From the NCBI GenBank assembly GCA_024231375.1, contig JAAEQP010000827.1:1-8198 (forward strand): DNA of 8,198 nt, in the 5' to 3' direction. This document shows, one piece after another, positions 837 through 8,198 of the stretch (its first letter is position 1; each line of letters opens with the position of its first letter). Source of the DNA: a bacterium. Lineage in GTDB: Bacteria > Hydrogenedentota > Hydrogenedentia > Hydrogenedentiales > SLHB01. Below the pieces are notes generated by a model. The model had not been told where the DNA came from. It did no database searches and was given only the letters and a program-made list of their open reading frames with translations. Made by a program: the position numbers and the translations under genes.

Positions 837-908
837 TTGTAGCGCAGGCGTCTCGCCTGCATCTTCTCACGATCCGGAGGGATTGCAGGCGAGACGCCTG
901 TGCTACAA
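837..908. repeat. Large inverted repeat (REP-like), possible bidirectional terminator
   Basis: The 24-base arms 837-860 and 885-908 pair at 23 of 24 positions, and the one exception is a G-T wobble. The loop is 24 bases (861-884). Each arm contains its own perfect small palindrome: GCAGGCG, a 3-base loop, then CGCCTGC. The element can therefore fold as one long stem or as two hairpins. It fills the gap between two convergent genes, where it could stop transcription from both sides, although no T-run follows. Its style matches dispersed palindromic repeats in GC-rich genomes; only this copy is visible here. Confidence 0.75.
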
Positions 909-2094: not shown

Positions 2095-3603
2095 ATGACC
2101 AGGCATAGTAGGCGCGCGTTCCTGCGGGCCTCCGCTGCGGGTGTAGGTGCCGCATTAGCGGGGCGCGCAGCAGCGGGTGAACCGCGCCGGCGCCCCAACA
2201 TCCTGCTGCTCGTGTCCGAAGACAACGGCCCGGAACTCGGCTGCTATGGCGAGCCGCATGTCCGAACACCCGTCCTCGATCACATGGCCGCCCAAGGCGT
2301 TCGTTTCGAGAAGGCCTTCGTCACCCAAGCAGGATGCAGTCCGTCACGCGCGTCGTTCCTGACAGGACTGTATCCACATCAGAACGGCCAAATCGGGTTG
2401 GCGACCTGGCGCTTCGCGATGTATCGCGAGGACACCCCCAATGTCGCCACCACCCTCAAGGCCGCGGGGTACCGCACCGGAATCATCGGCAAACTGCACG
2501 TCAATCCCGAACGTGCGTTCCCCTTTGACTTCAAGAGCGTTCCTTCGGCCAATTTCGGGCGAATGACTTTGGACCAGTACGCCGAAACCGCGTCCGGTTT
2601 CTTCAACGAGAGCGACGAACCCTTCTTCCTTTCCGTGAACTTCCCGGATGCCCACCGGCCATTCCTGCGCCGCGCCGAGAGTCGGCCCGAGAAGCCGCTC
2701 ACGAGCGAGAGCATTGAGCCGTTGCGATTCATTGGGCTCGACTCGCCGCGGCTTCGAAAGGACACGGTCAATTACTACAATTGCATGGAACGGCTCGATG
2801 ACATGGTCGGCGAGATGTTGACCGCGCTCGAGGCGTGCGGCAAGGCCGACAATACGATCGTGGTCTACATCGGCGACCACGGAGCCGACCTCCTTCGCGG
2901 TAAGCGCACCTCCTATGAGGGCGGCGTGCGGATACCGCTGATCGTGTGGTGGCCGGGCCAAGCCAAACGCGGTCTCGTGTGCGAAGAACTCGTCAGCACA
3001 GTGGACCTCTTGCCGACGTTTCTGGCTGCGGCACAGGTTGAACCCCTTGACGATTTACCGGGGCGTTCCCTCTTGCCGTTGGTATGCGGAGAACCGGTGG
3101 AGTGGCGTCAGCACCTCTTCACTGAGTTTCACACGCACTCCGCCCACAACTACTACCCCCAGCGTACCGTGCGCGATGAACGTTTCAAACTGATTTGGAA
3201 CCTGCTGCCGGGTCAGGTTAACCCCGGCCATGATTTCGCCATTGAGAAGCACTACAGCCAAAAGGAAATCGGCGAGGCTCTTGCCGAAGCCCCGGAGGAA
3301 GTGCGCGCTGCCTATGCGCTCATGAAGTGCCCGCCCGAATTCGAACTCTACGACCTGCGGGATGACGCCTACGAGTTCCGGAACCTCGCTGCAGACGCCA
3401 CCCACGCGAAGAAGCTGGAGGCGTTGAAAGCGCAGTTGATCGCCTGGCGGCAGGAGACGAAGGACCCGTTTCTCGACCCCGCCAATGTGCTCCGCCTGAA
3501 GGACGAGGTCGAGGCCACGAAGATTGACGGCAAGTACGTGAAGAGGGAAGGGCCGTGGGGCTACGTCGACTACATGGCGCCGCCGCGAACGGAATCCCTG
3601 TGA
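2095..3603 (+). CDS. Tat-exported type I sulfatase, heparan N-sulfatase (SGSH)-like
   Basis: A 502-residue arylsulfatase-superfamily enzyme that hydrolyses sulfate esters or sulfamates of polysaccharides, probably in the periplasm or outside the cell. The N-terminus (residues 1-28) is a twin-arginine signal, HSRRAFLR, followed by an Ala-rich segment. Metal-binding acidic residues lie in SEDNG (41-45). C81 in CSPSRASFLTG is the cysteine that a formylglycine-generating enzyme would oxidise. GKLH (132-135), DAH (185-187) and GDHG (260-263), followed by K270, complete the usual active-site set. The sequence DNGPELGCYG plus PHQNGQIGLA is typical of SGSH-like sulfatases, so the subfamily is likely but not certain. 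The start at 2095 is set by AAAGGAG (2081-2087), 7 bases upstream. An ATG at 2077 and a GTG at 1990 are in frame but less likely, since both precede that ribosome site. No maturase gene is in the window. Confidence 0.93.
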   Translation: MTRHSRRAFLRASAAGVGAALAGRAAAGEPRRRPNILLLVSEDNGPELGCYGEPHVRTPVLDHMAAQGVRFEKAFVTQAGCSPSRASFLTGLYPHQNGQIGLATWRFAMYREDTPNVATTLKAAGYRTGIIGKLHVNPERAFPFDFKSVPSANFGRMTLDQYAETASGFFNESDEPFFLSVNFPDAHRPFLRRAESRPEKPLTSESIEPLRFIGLDSPRLRKDTVNYYNCMERLDDMVGEMLTALEACGKADNTIVVYIGDHGADLLRGKRTSYEGGVRIPLIVWWPGQAKRGLVCEELVSTVDLLPTFLAAAQVEPLDDLPGRSLLPLVCGEPVEWRQHLFTEFHTHSAHNYYPQRTVRDERFKLIWNLLPGQVNPGHDFAIEKHYSQKEIGEALAEAPEEVRAAYALMKCPPEFELYDLRDDAYEFRNLAADATHAKKLEALKAQLIAWRQETKDPFLDPANVLRLKDEVEATKIDGKYVKREGPWGYVDYMAPPRTESL

Positions 3604-3775: not shown

Positions 3776-4942
3776 CTATCTCGAACCGGTTTTCTGAATG
3801 GGGAATCGCAGGACAAACAACGCCCCGCGGCCGTCGTTGTCCTTTAGCACCACATCCCCATCGTGTCGCCGCATCACGTTTTTCACGGCGACCAGTCCGA
3901 GGCCCGTGCCTCCTTCGCCTTTAGTCGAATAGAATGTTTCGAATACCTGCTTCCGCAACGCTTCCGGGATGCCCGGGCCCGTGTCGCCGACGGCGAGACA
4001 GACGTAGTCGCCGTCGCGCCAGGTACTGACATGCAGTTCCCGCGGATCGGGGCGCTCTTCCATGGCGTGGCATGCGTTGGTGATCAGATTCAACACGGCC
4101 TGACGCACCAACACGAAGTCGCCTTCGGTCAACGGTAGCGAGGCGTCCAGATCGCGTTTCACCGTCACGTCGCTCCGCAACAGGATGGGATGACCGATGT
4201 CGATGCAGGCCTCGGCCACCTCGTTCAGATTCAGTATCACGAACTCCTCGCTCTTGTGGCGCAGGAAATTCATCGCCGTGCGGACGATTTCGCTGCACAA
4301 CTGGCTCTGAGACCGGATGGAATCGAGCCGGTCGTTCATGCCTTCCCGCTCGGGACGGGTCTGGATGATCTCCACCTGACTTCCGATGACCGCCAGAGGC
4401 GTGCCGAGGTCGTGGAGCATACCCGACACAAACTGCCCGAGCGTCTCGAACCGGTTGGCCTGCAACGCGAGGTGCTCAAGTTGCCGCCGTTCCAATTCGC
4501 GTTTCCGCTTTGTCAGCCCCTGCTCGACATACTGCCGGAGCACGGTGCTGTCGAATGGTTTTTCAAGATACGCGAAGGCGCCGTACTCCACCGCTTTCAT
4601 GGCGGTGTTCAGGTCGCTGTACCCGGTGAGGATGATGACTTCCGTCTCGGGGAAGGACGTCTTGGTCCACTGAAGCAGGTCGACGCCCGTCTTCTTGGGC
4701 ATGCGGATGTCGGTAATCACGAGGTCGATGGGAGTATCCTGGAGGATTTCCTCGGCCGACGCCACATTCTCGGCCATCAGCACTTCGTAATCCTCGTTGA
4801 GCAACATGCGTAGAGCCTGGCGTGGACCGTTCTCGTCGTCCACCACCAGAACTCGCCCCGCGAAATCCGTAGAAATCACGACCTGTTCTGTCCGTTCCTC
4901 AACGCCCATCTGGTATTCTTCCACAGCCATTTGCAGTCCCAT
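3776..4942 (-). CDS. Soluble receiver-histidine kinase protein (REC-HisKA-HATPase_c)
   Basis: A 388-residue two-component protein with an N-terminal receiver and a C-terminal kinase. The receiver (about 30-140) has D35/D36, phospho-acceptor D78 in TDIRMP, T106 and K128 in EKPF. A charged, coiled-coil-like linker (about 143-165) leads to the HisKA helix with phospho-histidine H177 in HDLGTPL. The ATPase domain has an N box (NLITNA, N289), a G1 box (DTGPGI, 320-325) and a G2 box (GTGLGL, 345-350). No membrane segment is visible, so it is cytoplasmic and probably takes phosphate from, or senses the state of, another kinase. ATG 4942 is preferred because GGGGA precedes it at suitable spacing. An in-frame TTG at 5023 lies inside the sigma-54 promoter and cannot be the start; in-frame ATGs at 4973, 4930 and 4909 remain possible. 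No cognate regulator is adjacent. Confidence 0.9.
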   Translation of the reverse strand: MGLQMAVEEYQMGVEERTEQVVISTDFAGRVLVVDDENGPRQALRMLLNEDYEVLMAENVASAEEILQDTPIDLVITDIRMPKKTGVDLLQWTKTSFPETEVIILTGYSDLNTAMKAVEYGAFAYLEKPFDSTVLRQYVEQGLTKRKRELERRQLEHLALQANRFETLGQFVSGMLHDLGTPLAVIGSQVEIIQTRPEREGMNDRLDSIRSQSQLCSEIVRTAMNFLRHKSEEFVILNLNEVAEACIDIGHPILLRSDVTVKRDLDASLPLTEGDFVLVRQAVLNLITNACHAMEERPDPRELHVSTWRDGDYVCLAVGDTGPGIPEALRKQVFETFYSTKGEGGTGLGLVAVKNVMRRHDGDVVLKDNDGRGALFVLRFPIQKTGSR

Positions 4943-5439
4943 CTTCGTTCCCCATGAGTCAATCTGCAGCATTCGTCTGTCCAGCACACACGCTGTGCAT
5001 GGATAGAGCAACCCGTGTGCCAACCTTGTGATCTGTCTGTAAAGTGTTTATTTCGCGCGTGTTGCGGAATCCGTCCGCGCCCACCTCTTCGCACATTCAC
5101 GAACGATCTCCTGGCACACCGCCGAAATGCGGACAAGAATGTACGAAAATTTGGCACTGGCCGAAACGGCGGATTGGGCAACGTCCCAACCAGAAGTCAC
5201 TTAGGCTCCGTAGGATGATCCAAGGACTACGGGGTATGTTGTGAGCTCTGCTCCCTCTTCTGCTAGGGTATCTGGCATGAGCCTGGTGGCACGGAAAGTC
5301 GCACCCGGGTTCCTGCATCACGGGACGCAACGGGGGAATCGCCGGGCGGATGGGTTCGAGACGAACGGGGGACTGTGAGGCGCATGATTGATGATCGCTG
5401 TCCCCGCTTATCCCTCGAGACGGAAGAGGAGAGACTTCC
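4943..5439. other. Divergent intergenic region between kinase and HEAT-like gene
   Basis: Apart from the sigma-54 element at 5007-5023, I see only short palindromes: CCGTAG/CTACGG at 5208-5213 and 5227-5232, and GTTCG/CGAAC near 5354-5366. No gene and no convincing sigma-70 promoter for the rightward gene were found. Activator-binding sites for the sigma-54 promoter would be expected at about 5080-5200, but no clear repeated half-site is visible there. Confidence 0.5.
5007..5023 (-). promoter_or_regulatory. Sigma-54 (-24/-12) promoter of the receiver-kinase gene
   Basis: Read on the minus strand, the sequence is TTGGCACACGGGTTGCT, against the RpoN consensus YTGGCACGRNNNTTGCW. The invariant GG (5021-5020) and GC (5009-5008) are separated by the required 10 bases. 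The expected transcription start is near 4996, giving a 5' untranslated region of about 55 bases before the ATG at 4942. Such promoters need an AAA+ activator, and none is encoded in the window. Confidence 0.75.
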
Positions 5440-6299
5440 ATGCTGGTAGTAGTTCTGGTGCTGTCCCGAGTCCTCGTGAGCGCGAATGAGAGCGCGGGCG
5501 TAGACGCCGAGCGCCTACCGCCTCCCGTTGCCGACCAGTACACAATGCTAACCGAACTGGCCGCCGAGTATGGAATGAGCCAGGAGAGCATAGAGACGTT
5601 ATGGAAGGACCTGCGCAGGCCCCCCAACAGGCGTGGGCTGCGGGCAGGTTCGACTTCTGGAGGAAGAGCGGAATCGACCTCGTGCCCCTGCTTGTTCATC
5701 TGGGGAGCGAAAGCGACCTGCCCATGGTGTCCGAGTTCCCTTTGTCCAAGTACGTAGTCTTCAGTTGGCTTGGACACCTAGCTGATGAAGAGGCCGTGGA
5801 GTTCCTGCTTGAACTCGTGGACTCAGCCTTTGAAGAGGGAATTCGCTCGCGGCATGATGTCCATTATCTGATGTATCTCTTCAACTGCCTCGGATGCTCA
5901 GGCCATGCGAAGGCCCTTGAGTTCCTCTTCAACGCTCAGAGCCGTGAGTTCTGGGAAGGAACGGGGCCTAACTTTGAGTTGCCAGCAATTGAGGGCGCGA
6001 TGACCTCTGAGGAGCATGCCGCAATGCGCCGCAGGATGTTGAGGGAGTCCGCCCTCCAAGCGATCGCTGCGTCGGGTACTGAGCGCGCGTTGAAAGCCCT
6101 CGCGACGGGCCAAGGCATTAGCCCGCGTTTCCACGATGATTTGGAGTACCTTTTCGCCGTCGCTGCACGGACATCCGTAGGAATACCGGGATTCCCTGAG
6201 AATGTGGGAAGAAGCGTTCCTGATGACAAGCTTGAAGCTCTAGAGTCAGTCTGCGAGCGATATGGGATGGAGCTCTTCCTGTTGCGGCCAGATGAATAA
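5440..6299 (+). pseudogene. HEAT-like alpha-helical protein, split by a frameshift at a C6 run
   Basis: The first frame starts at ATG 5440 after AGGAG, 8-9 bases upstream. It begins with a hydrophobic segment (MLVVVLVLSRVLVSA) that looks like a signal peptide or anchor, and runs sensibly to SIETLWKDLRRPP. It then loses protein character at the six-C run 5620-5625. The -1 frame continues with QQAWAAGRFDFWRKSGIDL and stays protein-like to the TAA at 6297-6299. Adding one C would give a single protein of about 286 residues. The second part is strongly helical, with repeat-like blocks such as WLGHLADEEAVEFLLELVD and ESALQAIAASGTERALKALA, consistent with HEAT-type scaffold repeats. The function is unknown. 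The split may be a real mutation, a sequencing error in the homopolymer, or less likely programmed slippage. An ATG at 5601 in the second frame lacks a good ribosome site. Confidence 0.6.
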
Positions 6300-6301
6300 C
6301 C

Positions 6302-6332
6302 GCGGACTGTGGAACTGCTTAGAGAAGTCCGC
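6302..6332 (+). terminator. Possible terminator after the HEAT-like gene
   Basis: GCGGACT (6302-6308) and AGTCCGC (6326-6332) form a perfect 7-bp stem with a 17-base loop. It begins 3 bases after the stop codon at 6297-6299 and is followed by a loose T-rich stretch (AAGTTGTTTG). The long loop and weak T-run keep confidence low. Confidence 0.35.
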
Positions 6333-6350
6333 AAGTTGTTTGTGAAGCCC

Positions 6351-6413
6351 GCGAAAAGGCCAGGGACAGACCCGTTTCGCTACGCTCGCTGGGGTCAGTC
6401 CCGGCGTTTTCGC
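6351..6413. repeat. REP-like imperfect palindrome
   Basis: The arms 6351-6373 and 6391-6413 pair imperfectly over about 23 bases (GCGAAAA...GGGAC...GACCC against GGGTC...GTCCC...TTTTCGC), around a central CGTTTCGCTACGCTCGC. The GGGACAGACCC/GGGTCAGTCCC core is the style of REP elements linked with RAYT (REP-associated tyrosine) transposases in many bacteria; that link is from general knowledge. No transposase gene is present here. A short coding remnant on the minus strand ends inside the right arm. Confidence 0.65.
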
Positions 6414-6517
6414 TCCTGTTCTCGGCGTTCTTTGAGAGCGCTGCACGCGAGGCGCCGGACTGCGGCAGGCCGAAGCGCGGGGTTGTACTCGAATTGTCCG
6501 TCGTTCTTCGTGTCGTA
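6395..6517 (-). pseudogene. Possible 40-residue C-terminal gene remnant
   Basis: On the minus strand, one frame from 6517 to the TGA at 6397-6395 reads YDTKNDGQFEYNPALRPAAV and then RRLACSALKERREQERKRRD. Its composition is natural, with a basic helical tail. A TAG at 6520-6518 lies immediately upstream in the same frame, there is no start codon, and the stop falls inside the REP-like arm. I do not recognise the family. It may be a decayed gene end left beside the repeat, or a chance open frame. Confidence 0.3.
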
Positions 6518-6684
6518 CTAGCATGCCGTAAGTTCCACAATTGCAGGACTTGGCGTTTCGATTCCTGACGCCTGCCTCGATACGATGACGCGCAGAAGAA
6601 ATCTTCTGAGACTGCTGAGAAAAGTATGCATAAGCCTGTGAAGAGTATCGGGGCCACTCTACTTTGTAGCGGGGTTCCAGAAGG

Positions 6685-6715
6685 GGGACAAGAAAACGCT
6701 TGCGTTTTATGTCCC
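6685..6715. repeat. Second REP-like hairpin
   Basis: GGGACA (6685-6690) pairs with TGTCCC (6710-6715). After a small asymmetric bulge, AAAACGC (6693-6699) pairs with GCGTTTT (6702-6708), leaving a 2-base tip. Its GGGAC ends and AAAACGC block recall the palindrome at 6351-6413, so the two may belong to one repeat family. Confidence 0.55.
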
Positions 6716-6814
6716 GCCATGGTAATACTAGCGTATTGCAGAACAGTTTATGGGTTCCGGCCCGCACGCGTGCGTGCAGCGCCGATAGGATGGAAGAAAG
6801 GAAAGGACAGCTAA

Positions 6815-6937
6815 ATGCGGAATTGGCAATACAAGCGAATTAACACCGGCATGCCGGTGTCGAAGACGGTTATGCACCGTCTCGCGCTTGCCGTATCCGC
6901 CTGCGGCGTCCCGACCAGGAGGCTTCCTATCGAGTAG
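6815..6937 (+). CDS. 40-codon leader ORF inside the structured RNA
   Basis: ATG 6815 follows AAAGGA with 7-base spacing, and the frame ends at TAG 6935-6937. The product has 40 residues: MRNWQYKRINTG (1-12), then PVSKTVMHRLALAVSACGVP and TRRLPIE. No family is recognised; the middle could form a helix. The ORF overlaps the junction-like fold at 6832-6890 and the first antiterminator arm at 6896-6909. Its stop lies between that arm and the arm at 6963-6976. This geometry is what ribosome-controlled attenuation would need, but there is no obvious run of regulatory codons. It could instead be an ordinary small protein or an accidental ORF. Confidence 0.4.
   Translation: MRNWQYKRINTGMPVSKTVMHRLALAVSACGVPTRRLPIE
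6832..6909 (+). ncRNA. Candidate structured leader: three-way junction plus antiterminator arm
   Basis: CAAGCG (6832-6837) pairs with CGCTTG (6885-6890) and encloses two hairpins. The first is ACACCGG-CATG-CCGGTGT (6843-6860), a perfect 18-base palindrome. The second is AGACGGT-TATGC-ACCGTCT (6864-6870 with 6876-6882). Together they form a compact three-way junction. Five bases later comes TCCGCCTGCGGCGT (6896-6909), perfectly complementary over 14 bases to 6963-6976. The layout is that of an aptamer followed by an expression platform. I could not match it by eye to TPP, SAM, cobalamin, glycine or c-di-GMP riboswitches. Confidence 0.45.
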
Positions 6938-6962
6938 CACACGCGCACTAGAAGCCGATCCA

Positions 6963-7001
6963 ACGCCGCAGGCGGAACCCTAAACCGCTTGCGGCGTTTT
7001 T
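6963..7001 (+). terminator. Rho-independent terminator with competing antiterminator pairing
   Basis: ACGCCGCAGGCGG (6963-6975) pairs with CCGCTTGCGGCGT (6985-6997) over 13 bp with one G-U, around a 9-base loop, followed by T5 (6997-7001). The same left arm is perfectly complementary over 14 bases to 6896-6909, so only one of the two stems can form at a time. It lies about 95 bases before the next possible start codon (7097) and could gate transcription of the downstream regulator. Confidence 0.7.
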
Positions 7002-7096
7002 CTTGTTGATGGTGTTGTTCGCAGTACGGCACGACCGGGCATGTGACCCGGAAGGCCGACAACCAGGCCGATTACGGCCACGAAAGGAGCGATGAG

Positions 7097-7267
7097 ATGA
7101 ACCGTTTCATCCAAGTGACAATCCGACCGGTAGAAGTGCAGCTAACCCACGGCGCGCGACTCAGGAAACGAAACTATGGCTGCAGGAGTGGGGAAAGGTT
7201 ACGAAGCTGCAAAGGAGTGGGGAACGATGGCTCAGTTCAACCCAGATTTTTGGGAAGTTGCGATTGA
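7097..7267 (+). CDS. Small ORF of unknown function overlapping the regulator start
   Basis: ATG 7097 follows AAAGGAG with 7-base spacing, which is a good ribosome site. The 56-residue product begins MNRFIQVTIRPVEVQLTHGA and is basic (RLRKRNYG). Its second half reads through the duplicated ribosome-site DNA before 7227 and overlaps the sigma-region-4 gene by 41 bases in another frame. No family is recognised. It could be a small regulator, a translational-coupling leader for the next gene, or the start of a gene disrupted by the local duplication. Confidence 0.35.
   Translation: MNRFIQVTIRPVEVQLTHGARLRKRNYGCRSGERLRSCKGVGNDGSVQPRFLGSCD
7179..7223 (+). repeat. Direct duplication of a ribosome-site segment
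   Basis: GCTGCAGGAGTGGGGA (7179-7194) recurs as GCTGCAAAGGAGTGGGGA (7206-7223), differing by two inserted A. The second copy supplies AAAGGAG, 9 bases before ATG 7227. The first copy lies just after an in-frame ATG at 7176. Confidence 0.6.
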
Positions 7268-7652
7268 CTCCAGTTACCTGGAGAACGTGCCAGCAGAGGG
7301 CGCGATGTGGTTTGAAACCGAACAGGATCGAGATTGCAGACACGCACAGCAGGACTTCTTCCGGAGTGTCTTGCCCATCGTCGACGAGTTGATCGACGGG
7401 CACCTGACAACCCGGCAGCAGGAAGTCGTGCGGCTGTACTTCTTCGAAGGCAAGACCCAGGAGGACATCGCCGAGGCCCTGAAGCTGACGCAGTCCACCG
7501 TGAGTCGGCACCTGTTCGGAACGGTCCGTAACGGCAAGAAGGTTGGGGGCGCGGTCAACAAGCTGCGCAAGGCCGTCGAGCGCGACGCCGCCAAGGCGCC
7601 GGTCGACGAAGCCCTGGCGGAGTTGCACGACCGGTTCAACACGGCCGCATAG
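7227..7652 (+). CDS. Stand-alone sigma-70 region 4-like DNA-binding protein
   Basis: A 141-residue protein. Residues about 59-118 form a sigma region 4-like helix-turn-helix: HLTTRQQEVVRLYFFEGKTQ followed by EDIAEALKLTQSTVSRHL, where TQSTVSRHL is the likely recognition helix. A basic segment, RNGKKVGGAVNKLRKAVERD, follows. There is no sigma region 2, so it is not a complete sigma factor; the acidic, aromatic N-terminus (FNPDFWEVAID, WFETEQD) takes its place. It probably binds DNA or core polymerase as a small regulator, as suggested for phage late regulators and for planctomycete-type sigma-4-only proteins. ATG 7227 is preferred over the in-frame ATG 7176 because it has AAAGGAG at good spacing. 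Upstream lies the terminator/antiterminator leader, so expression may be attenuation-controlled. Confidence 0.75.
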   Translation: MAQFNPDFWEVAIDSSYLENVPAEGAMWFETEQDRDCRHAQQDFFRSVLPIVDELIDGHLTTRQQEVVRLYFFEGKTQEDIAEALKLTQSTVSRHLFGTVRNGKKVGGAVNKLRKAVERDAAKAPVDEALAELHDRFNTAA

Positions 7653-7693
7653 ACCGGGCCGCGCCGGAGTGACCGGCGCAGGCCATGAAGAGA

Positions 7694-7735
7694 CCACAAC
7701 GTCGCCCCGCGCCGCCTGTTGTGGCGGCGCGGGCG
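7694..7735 (+). terminator. GC-rich hairpin after the regulator gene, with an alternative stem
   Basis: 7703-7716 and 7723-7735 form a 13-bp GC stem (CGCC...GCGCCGCC against GGCGGCGC...GGCG) with one bulged C and a 6-base loop. No T-run follows. CCACAAC (7694-7700) can instead pair perfectly with GTTGTGG (7718-7724), which would break the main stem. It begins about 40 bases after the stop codon and may act as a terminator or 3' stabiliser. Confidence 0.45.
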
Positions 7736-7812
7736 TCGAAGTGGCATGGGGCACGAACGGGGGACAACGAAATGCGAAAAGCACACCCGATACGACATTC
7801 TGTAAAGATTGC

Positions 7813-7841
7813 TTGAGCGACGGGCAAGAGTCTGATACACT
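7813..7841 (+). promoter_or_regulatory. Possible distal sigma-70 promoter
   Basis: TTGAGC (7813-7818) and TACACT (7836-7841) are separated by 17 bases, with four of six consensus matches each. It would give a leader of about 160 bases for the gene at 8009, or drive a small RNA. Confidence 0.35.
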
Positions 7842-7935
7842 CTCCGCGTGCGAGACGGGGGTACGCTGTCATCTCGTACGCTTAGGGGACGGTGACGCTC
7901 ACTTTCCACCTAATTCACAACGGATAGGCTTTTTC

Positions 7936-7964
7936 TTGACAGTCCGATCCGTTTGTGGTTAAAT
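7936..7964 (+). promoter_or_regulatory. Strong sigma-70 promoter for the secreted Trp-rich protein
   Basis: A perfect -35 box TTGACA (7936-7941) and TTAAAT (7959-7964) are separated by 17 bases. Transcription would start near 7971, about 38 bases before the ATG at 8009. A strong ribosome site, GAAGGAGAAG, follows in that leader. Confidence 0.7.
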
Positions 7965-8008
7965 GTTCACAGACAACGGTTTAAACCGCGGAGAAGGAGA
8001 AGACCGCC

Positions 8009-8198
8009 ATGAAAAAGTTGCTCGTGGGCGCGTTCGCCGTCGCGCTGGTGACAGCAAGCGTCACCGCGTATGCGGATTGCGGAAAAGTCTGGGATGACCT
8101 CTCGTGGTGGGGCAATACCGGTGCCACGCCAGCGGTAGTCAAAGACGCTACCCGGTCCGGCTACTGGTGGTGGCCCAAGACGCCGGCCTCCAACGCCG
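8009..8198 (+). CDS. Secreted Trp-rich protein, N-terminal part (3' end outside window)
   Basis: ATG 8009 follows GAAGGAGAAG, and the frame is open to the window end (63 codons plus one base). Residues 1-22 are a classical Sec signal: MKK, a hydrophobic core LLVGAFAVALVTASV, and an AYA cleavage site before D23. The mature part is unusual, with six tryptophans between residues 28 and 55 (KVWDD, SWWG, GYWWWP), separated by GNTGATPAVVKDATRS. I do not recognise the family. The consensus -35 box and strong ribosome site suggest an abundant product such as a surface or cell-envelope protein; that is inference. C24 is not in a convincing lipobox. Confidence 0.75.
   Translation, partial: MKKLLVGAFAVALVTASVTAYADCGKVWDDLSWWGNTGATPAVVKDATRSGYWWWPKTPASNA

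What the first reader, a model, noticed from the sequence alone, without database searches (positions are those of the whole stretch)
6815..7001. Possible new structured leader RNA with switching terminator upstream of a sigma-4-like regulator
A three-way junction (6832-6890) enclosing two perfect 7-bp hairpins is followed by a 14-base arm (6896-6909). That arm is perfectly complementary to 6963-6976, which also forms the 5' half of a T5-tailed terminator (to 7001). Mutually exclusive stems next to a compact fold are the hallmark of an attenuator or riboswitch. Pairings are read directly from the sequence; the regulatory role is inferred.
Basis: partly seen in the sequence, partly recalled or inferred. 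Interest (0 to 1): 0.75.

Follow-up and report, generated by a model that had tools for sequence, protein, structure and literature searches.

The report
Ribosome-sensing switch before a gene regulator
A stretch of messenger RNA in an uncultured bacterium looks like a switch in which the position of a ribosome on a small reading frame decides whether transcription stops early or runs on into the gene of a DNA-binding regulator; relatives keep the same switch in changed letters.

Summary
The window's regulator is closest to Hydrogenedentota proteins. Upstream of it (7227-7652) lie a short ORF with a ribosome-binding site (uORF1, 6815-6937) and an intrinsic terminator (6962-7001). I analysed 33 of 35 loci (window + 34 homologues; one cut by its contig end, one diverged); all 33 have this layout. 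The 14-base arm is an antiterminator strand in the last codons of uORF1. Its partner in the terminator changes from locus to locus but stays complementary (z -9 against permuted partners). The same strand also pairs, locus-specifically (z -8), with uORF1's ribosome-binding/start region. This makes a chain anti-antiterminator, antiterminator, terminator. uORF1 stops 23-38 bases before the terminator in 33 of 33 loci, but its peptide is barely constrained, so ribosome position rather than an amino acid or metabolite is the likely signal. In folding models a ribosome at the start codon gives the antiterminator in 31 of 33 loci, one 18-30 bases before the stop in 1-3; with no ribosome 25 of 33 still form it, so the untranslated state is not clearly OFF. 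No Rfam match. I rate it a new variant of uORF-controlled transcription attenuation (vmlR, whiB7), not a riboswitch. Evidence is computational only.

The parts
6620..6632 (+). Conserved box AAAAGTATGCATA upstream of the leader; possible operator or activator site
   Evidence: Box of this type within 260 nt upstream of uORF1 in 29 of 33 loci. Exact 13-mer: 17 hits in 16 of 68 genomes, 11 of them at the regulator locus and one more at the same element at a contig end (L063). Function not tested.
6700..6728 (+). Possible promoter (TTGCGT, 17 nt, TAATAC), weak
   Evidence: By eye only; the consensus scan listed no promoter in 6000-8198.
6805..6821 (+). Segment U: ribosome-binding/start region of uORF1, anti-antiterminator strand (pairs with 6896-6911)
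   Evidence: Leader fold. Across 33 loci the windows around start-15..+10 pair with segment A of their own locus better than with others (z -8.1; -9.2 for start-25..+15).
6815..6937 (+). uORF1, 40 codons, MRNWQYKRINTGMPVSKTVMHRLALAVSACGVPTRRLPIE
   Evidence: Translation. SD-led ORF of 35-56 codons in 33 of 33 loci, starts chosen by hand, in nine loci not the first of the list; stop 23-38 nt before the terminator in 33 of 33.
6896..6921 (+). Segment A: antiterminator strand in the last codons of uORF1 (6896-6909 pairs perfectly with 6963-6976)
   Evidence: window stop-35..-10 pairs with the terminator of its own locus, z -9.0.
6962..6984 (+). Segment B: terminator 5' arm and loop
6985..7001 (+). 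Segment C: terminator 3' arm (6985-6998) and T-run (6997-7001)
7097..7267 (+). uORF2, overlaps the regulator start
   Evidence: SD-led ORF between terminator and regulator start in 31 of 33 loci by an automatic pick (in L033 it is a 91-codon frame running far into the gene); no locus-specific pairing with the regulator's SD.
7227..7652 (+). Region-4-like regulator, 141 aa
   Evidence: Sigma70_r4 E 7.8e-12 (scanned as 7176-7649); homologues start at 7227; found in 34 of 68 genomes of the phylum, one match each.

Best explanation
6805-7001 is a ribosome-controlled transcription attenuator for the region-4-like regulator gene. (1) As the leader is made, U (ribosome-binding and start region of uORF1) pairs with A (last codons of uORF1): an anti-antiterminator that brackets the uORF. 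(2) With A held by U, terminator B:C forms: OFF. (3) A ribosome held at the start or first codons covers U and frees A, which pairs with B: terminator prevented, ON. (4) A ribosome passing the last codons covers A, so B:C forms: OFF. The regulator would be made when ribosomes load on uORF1 but are slow, that is under translation stress of whatever cause. Shown by computation: the three alternative helices, their locus-specific complementarity, the uORF and its fixed stop position, weak constraint on the peptide. Inferred: that uORF1 is translated, that termination is conditional, the ON/OFF logic and the inducing condition; step (2), OFF without a ribosome, is the least secure.
For: A:B cognate mean -26.5 against -22.5 kcal/mol non-cognate, 0 of 20,000 permutations as good. 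Position scans: A:B peaks at stop-35..-10 (z -9.0), U:A at start-15..+10 (z -8.1); A:C -0.1, U:B +1.4. Uninterrupted helices of score 7 or more: U:A 23 of 33 cognate against 16.8% of non-cognate pairs, A:B 19 of 33 against 23.9%. Both signals survive thinning to 25 and 12 loci; mid-uORF controls flat. Stop 23-38 nt before the terminator in 33 of 33. uORF1 pN/pS 0.47-1.07 in 21 close pairs (one more undefined) against 0.11-0.33 for the regulator. Ribosome masks: start codon 31 of 33 loci with at least 6 A:B pairs, next three codons 32; stop-30, -24, -18: 1, 1, 3. In L036 only 36 nt separate terminator and regulator start, leaving little room for another promoter.
Against: No expression data. 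Without a ribosome, once B is made and C is not, 25 of 33 loci still have at least 6 A:B pairs, and the window itself strongly prefers A:B (14.3 against 0.3 U:A pairs), so OFF without translation is not predicted by equilibrium folding. A ribosome at the stop codon leaves A:B in 14 of 33. Seven of 33 loci have under 6 expected U:A pairs before B is made; 14 of 33 have no A:B helix of score 7. RNAalifold found no consensus helix for U:A and 3 pairs for A:B. Starts were chosen by hand, three terminators placed by hand.
Confidence: 0.72

Rival explanations
1. Ligand- or residue-specific leader peptide: uORF1 stalls ribosomes at particular codons or as an arrest peptide, so the switch senses one amino acid or compound.
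For: Same anatomy as amino-acid attenuators; many uORF1 ends read GSRP, GSRL or similar and most peptides have a Trp; Met, Thr and Val are more frequent than in the other two frames.
Against: pN/pS near 1 and no run of one residue by eye. The recurrent end lies where A must pair, so RNA pairing can explain it.
Confidence: 0.13
2. A riboswitch or protein-binding leader: the folded uORF1 interior binds a metabolite or a protein (perhaps the regulator), which sets U:A against A:B.
For: The interior folds better than shuffles (mean z -1.58); a conserved box and a divergent receiver/kinase gene suggest further control of the locus.
Against: No conserved core in the alignments and no Rfam match; the fixed uORF would be unexplained.
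Confidence: 0.06
3. A small independent gene with its own terminator: U:A only tunes translation of uORF1, and the regulator has its own promoter downstream.
For: SD-led ORF followed by a strong intrinsic terminator; no read-through data exist.
Against: It does not predict that the terminator 5' half and loop track the uORF end locus by locus; peptide hardly constrained; no promoter listed between terminator and regulator by a strict scan, and 36 nt of room in L036.
Confidence: 0.05

Closest known systems
vmlR leader of Bacillus subtilis (PMC9226507; abstract and passages read)
   Same: Anti-antiterminator, antiterminator, intrinsic terminator; ribosome stalling on a uORF prevents the anti-antiterminator; the paper reports that loss of the uORF start or SD nearly abolishes expression.
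   Different: There the uORF has three codons (MIN) in a bulge of one stem-loop, its SD single-stranded before it, and the target is an ABCF resistance factor. Here the uORF has 35-56 codons, its two ends are the two strands of the anti-antiterminator, and the target is a region-4-like regulator.
whiB7/wblC uORF attenuator of actinomycetes (review PMC11550727 and PMC12121999; passages read, primary papers not)
   Same: uORF translation favours an intrinsic terminator upstream of a transcription regulator; disturbed translation gives an antiterminator; several antibiotics and amino acid starvation induce.
   Different: Other regulator family and phylum; induction is not shown here. I did not compare the RNA structures.
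toiL uORF of Escherichia coli topAI (PMC12121999; abstract and passages read)
   Same: One uORF senses several translation stresses; stalling at different positions, the start codon included, changes the leader fold.
   Different: Controls translation and Rho-dependent termination, not an intrinsic terminator.
trp/his-type attenuators (recalled; ilvBNC passage in PMC11550727)
   Same: Segments 1:2, 2:3, 3:4 with a leader peptide.
   Different: No run of regulatory codons seen; segment 1 here is the start region of the uORF.

Membership tests
uORF-controlled transcription attenuator (anti-antiterminator type) | Intrinsic terminator between uORF and regulated gene | tested here: met
   33 of 33 analysed loci, 30 placed automatically, 3 by hand; termination itself not measured.
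uORF-controlled transcription attenuator (anti-antiterminator type) | Antiterminator mutually exclusive with the terminator | tested here: met
   A:B uses the terminator 5' arm and loop; locus-specific, z -9 to -10.
uORF-controlled transcription attenuator (anti-antiterminator type) | Anti-antiterminator overlapping the antiterminator | tested here: met
   U:A z -8 to -9; but under 6 expected pairs in 7 of 33 loci and no columnwise consensus.
uORF-controlled transcription attenuator (anti-antiterminator type) | uORF is translated and ribosome position sets the outcome | not testable with these tools
   SD and fixed stop position fit; only modelled.
Amino-acid leader-peptide attenuator (trp, his, ilv) | Run of codons for the sensed amino acid | tested here: not met
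   No run seen by eye in 33 peptides.
Riboswitch | Conserved aptamer core | tested here: not met
   Leader conservation is confined mainly to the terminator stem and short stretches of A; no Rfam family at gathering score in the window or 20 homologous loci.
whiB7/wblC leader | WhiB-family regulator downstream | tested here: not met
   Pfam shows Sigma70_r4 and related HTH families, no WhiB.

The most novel reading that the evidence does not exclude
A peptide-independent sensor of ribosome transit, at one locus per genome in Hydrogenedentota, gates a region-4-like regulator which, with a divergent receiver/histidine-kinase protein and an OmpA-like envelope protein beside it, runs a translation-stress response that this phylum evolved separately from WhiB7.
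Probability: 0.3. Interest if true: 0.72.

Novelty: new variant of a known kind. Interest (0 to 1): 0.6.

Why it matters
If true, ribosome-controlled attenuation has been adopted for a regulator in an uncultured phylum, with a compact design in which the two ends of one small frame are the two strands of the anti-antiterminator, so that loading and transit of ribosomes are read out directly. It would give a first handle on stress signalling in these bacteria and a ready reporter for translation stress. It also shows that leaders too variable for columnwise covariation can be recognised by asking whether each locus pairs better with itself than with its relatives. In the held open-access library no paper has a word beginning hydrogenedent together with attenuator, leader peptide or riboswitch.

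Tried and rejected
Known RNA families: no Rfam match at gathering score in the window or in 20 of the homologous loci; the one sub-threshold match (MIR856, E 2.8) is taken as chance. Columnwise covariation: MAFFT + RNAalifold gave a 3-pair helix for A+B and none for U+A; I turned to cognate-against-permuted tests.

The element elsewhere: a covariance model of A to C, with only the terminator paired and built from the same 33 sequences, matched 40 of 68 genomes at E<=0.01; 31 matches at E<=5.3e-6 and one at 1.7e-4 are the regulator loci it was built from. Six of the weaker matches were read; none had the box or a match to regulator, kinase or OmpA-like protein in the fetched stretch, and they look like ordinary terminators. 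A second switch at uORF2: no locus-specific pairing with the regulator's SD. A diverged regulator upstream of the OmpA-like gene in genomes without a regulator hit: 19 regions showed no regulator (best E 0.012), kinase or box as far as the stretch reached; a 20th region, fetched for its box, has no OmpA-like gene. Phage records: no match. Structures: Foldseek none at E<=0.001; phmmer weak matches, the best (8vd6, E 7.2e-6) with no stretch passing alone.

Rows dropped: of 35 loci (window + 34), L035 (leader cut by the contig end) and L051 (46% identity, no terminator placed) were left out before all counts of 33.

Full report
Origin and surroundings. No whole genome is held for the window. The regulator's closest named relatives are Hydrogenedentota; it is found in 34 of 68 genomes of that phylum at E<=1e-20, one match each. 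The protein has a Sigma70_r4 match and related HTH matches only; the predicted structure is confident from about residue 28 on (mean pLDDT 80.1). Neighbours recur: the divergent receiver + HisKA + HATPase gene (3776-5023, minus) has matches near the regulator in 26 of the 34 other loci, and the downstream exported protein (8009 onward; an OmpA domain in the L022 copy) in 20 of 34, with flanks of about 1.5 kb or less.

Observation.

Homologous leaders. Of 35 loci, 33 were analysed (L035 and L051 dropped). Terminators: 30 automatic, 3 by hand. uORF1: SD-led ORF of 35-56 codons in 33 of 33; I chose the starts by hand, in nine loci not the first of the list, L012 separately. Its stop begins 23-38 nt before the terminator in 33 of 33. 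With first-order Markov resampling the chance of a first in-frame stop 20-40 nt before the terminator is 0.058 per locus on average; as starts were chosen after seeing the sequences, this is an indication and not a p-value.

Antiterminator (A:B). Duplex energies of leader with terminator 5' arm plus loop are -26.5 kcal/mol for cognate and -22.5 for non-cognate pairs, 0 of 20,000 permutations as good. A 25-nt window slid along the leader peaks at stop-35..-10 (z -9.0; neighbours -4.5 and -5.9); the other windows lie between -2.1 and +2.5. The helices differ in letters: TCCGCCTGCGGCGT/ACGCCGCAGGCGGA (window), GGTCTCGCGGCGC/GCGCCGCGAGACC (L014), TGGGCCCCGCGG/CCGCGGGGCCCA (L015), GGGTTCGCC/GGCGAACCC (L030), CCTTAAGCTCTG/CAGGGCTTAAGG (L046).

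Anti-antiterminator (U:A). Strand A also pairs with the ribosome-binding/start region of uORF1: peak at start-15..+10, z -8.1 (neighbours -5.4 and -6.3), other windows between -2.5 and +1.0. Examples: CCAGGAACC/GGTTCCTGG (L041), CCGGACC/GGTCCGG (L043), AAGAACCC/GGGTTCTT (L044), GGCGTAATC/GATTACGCC (L026), AGGACGTGAACCG/CGGTTCGCGTCCT (L036). An earlier, wider test with another choice of segments gave a weaker U:A signal (z -3.4, p 0.00045; A:B -11.9). Controls: A:C z -0.1, U:B +1.4, mid-uORF:A 0.0, mid-uORF:B -0.7. With loci thinned by regulator identity to 25 and 12: U:A z -7.5 and -4.3, A:B -9.0 and -6.1. The broad U and A segments were set after seeing the sequences; the scans cover all positions.

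What is sensed. In the 22 closest pairs, uORF1 pN/pS is 0.47-1.07 (21 pairs; the 22nd, L029/L030, has no synonymous change) against 0.11-0.33 for the regulator; uORF1 pS is lower than the regulator's in 18 of 22. The pairs share loci, some are near saturation, and the alignments were protein-guided. This fits constraint on RNA pairing rather than on the peptide. No residue run stands out by eye. I read it as a sensor of ribosome position in general.

Modelled states. Without ribosomes the mean expected pairs are: U:A 14.1 before B is made; U:A 8.5 and A:B 8.9 with B made; B:C 12.9, U:A 13.8, A:B 0.4 with C made. The window goes 15.6 U:A, then 14.3 A:B (U:A 0.3), then 13.6 B:C with 15.0 U:A. 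With a 29-nt ribosome mask, loci with at least 6 A:B pairs are 31 of 33 at the start codon, 32 at the next three codons, 1, 1 and 3 at stop-30, -24 and -18, 14 at the stop codon, and 25 with no ribosome. This supports ON for ribosomes held early and OFF for ribosomes passing the end, but not a clear OFF without translation; that step needs slow exchange of U:A or is wrong. It is an equilibrium model with an assumed footprint.

Where else. The box AAAAGTATGCATA stands upstream in 29 of 33 loci; of 17 exact hits in 68 genomes, 11 are at regulator loci and one more is the same element cut by a contig end. The covariance model's strong matches are the loci it was built from, so the device seems confined to this gene, within that model's weak power.

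Known systems. The logic is that of vmlR (PMC9226507, abstract and passages), the type of target that of whiB7/wblC (PMC11550727 and PMC12121999, passages), and general sensing is known for toiL (PMC12121999, abstract and passages). What I could establish as different: a 35-56-codon uORF bracketed by its own two ends, a nearly free peptide, a region-4-like target and the phylum. No held paper joins the phylum with attenuator, leader peptide or riboswitch; broader searches were seen as listings only, in part capped. I therefore call it a new variant of a known kind.

Noticed in passing
window 6620-6632: Box AAAAGTATGCATA upstream of the leader promoter region in 29 of 33 loci and rare elsewhere in the genomes; possible operator for the regulator or the adjacent two-component protein.
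   Followed up: partly
window 8009-8198 (cut by the window end): Exported protein with the motif DDLSWWG..TGAT, full copies end in an OmpA domain (L022); matches in 52 of 68 Hydrogenedentota genomes, with or without the regulator.
   Followed up: partly
window 3776-5023, minus strand: Receiver + HisKA + HATPase protein in the reverse of the usual domain order, divergent from the regulator, with matches near it in 26 of 34 other loci.
   Followed up: partly
window 7097-7267: A second SD-led small frame between terminator and regulator, overlapping the regulator start, found in 31 of 33 loci; may couple translation.
   Followed up: partly
L005, L006, L007, upstream of position 3001: Poribacteria homologues of the regulator have another small frame upstream, with a shared end RRWCLCPFS (read by eye); no terminator was noticed there.
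   Followed up: no
L008 and L051: The record named Nitrospiraceae (L008) and the phylum genome G050 (L051) show the same upstream sequence and contig length 14395, so they seem to be one record; its name and its phylum placement disagree.
   Followed up: no
window 6351-6413: REP-like imperfect palindrome (14-base arms, 86% complementary) around AGGGACAGACCC / GGGGTCAGTCCC.
   Followed up: no
window 837-908: Inverted repeat with 25-base arms, 96% complementary, between the GH99-like gene and a MotA/ExbB-like frame.
   Followed up: no
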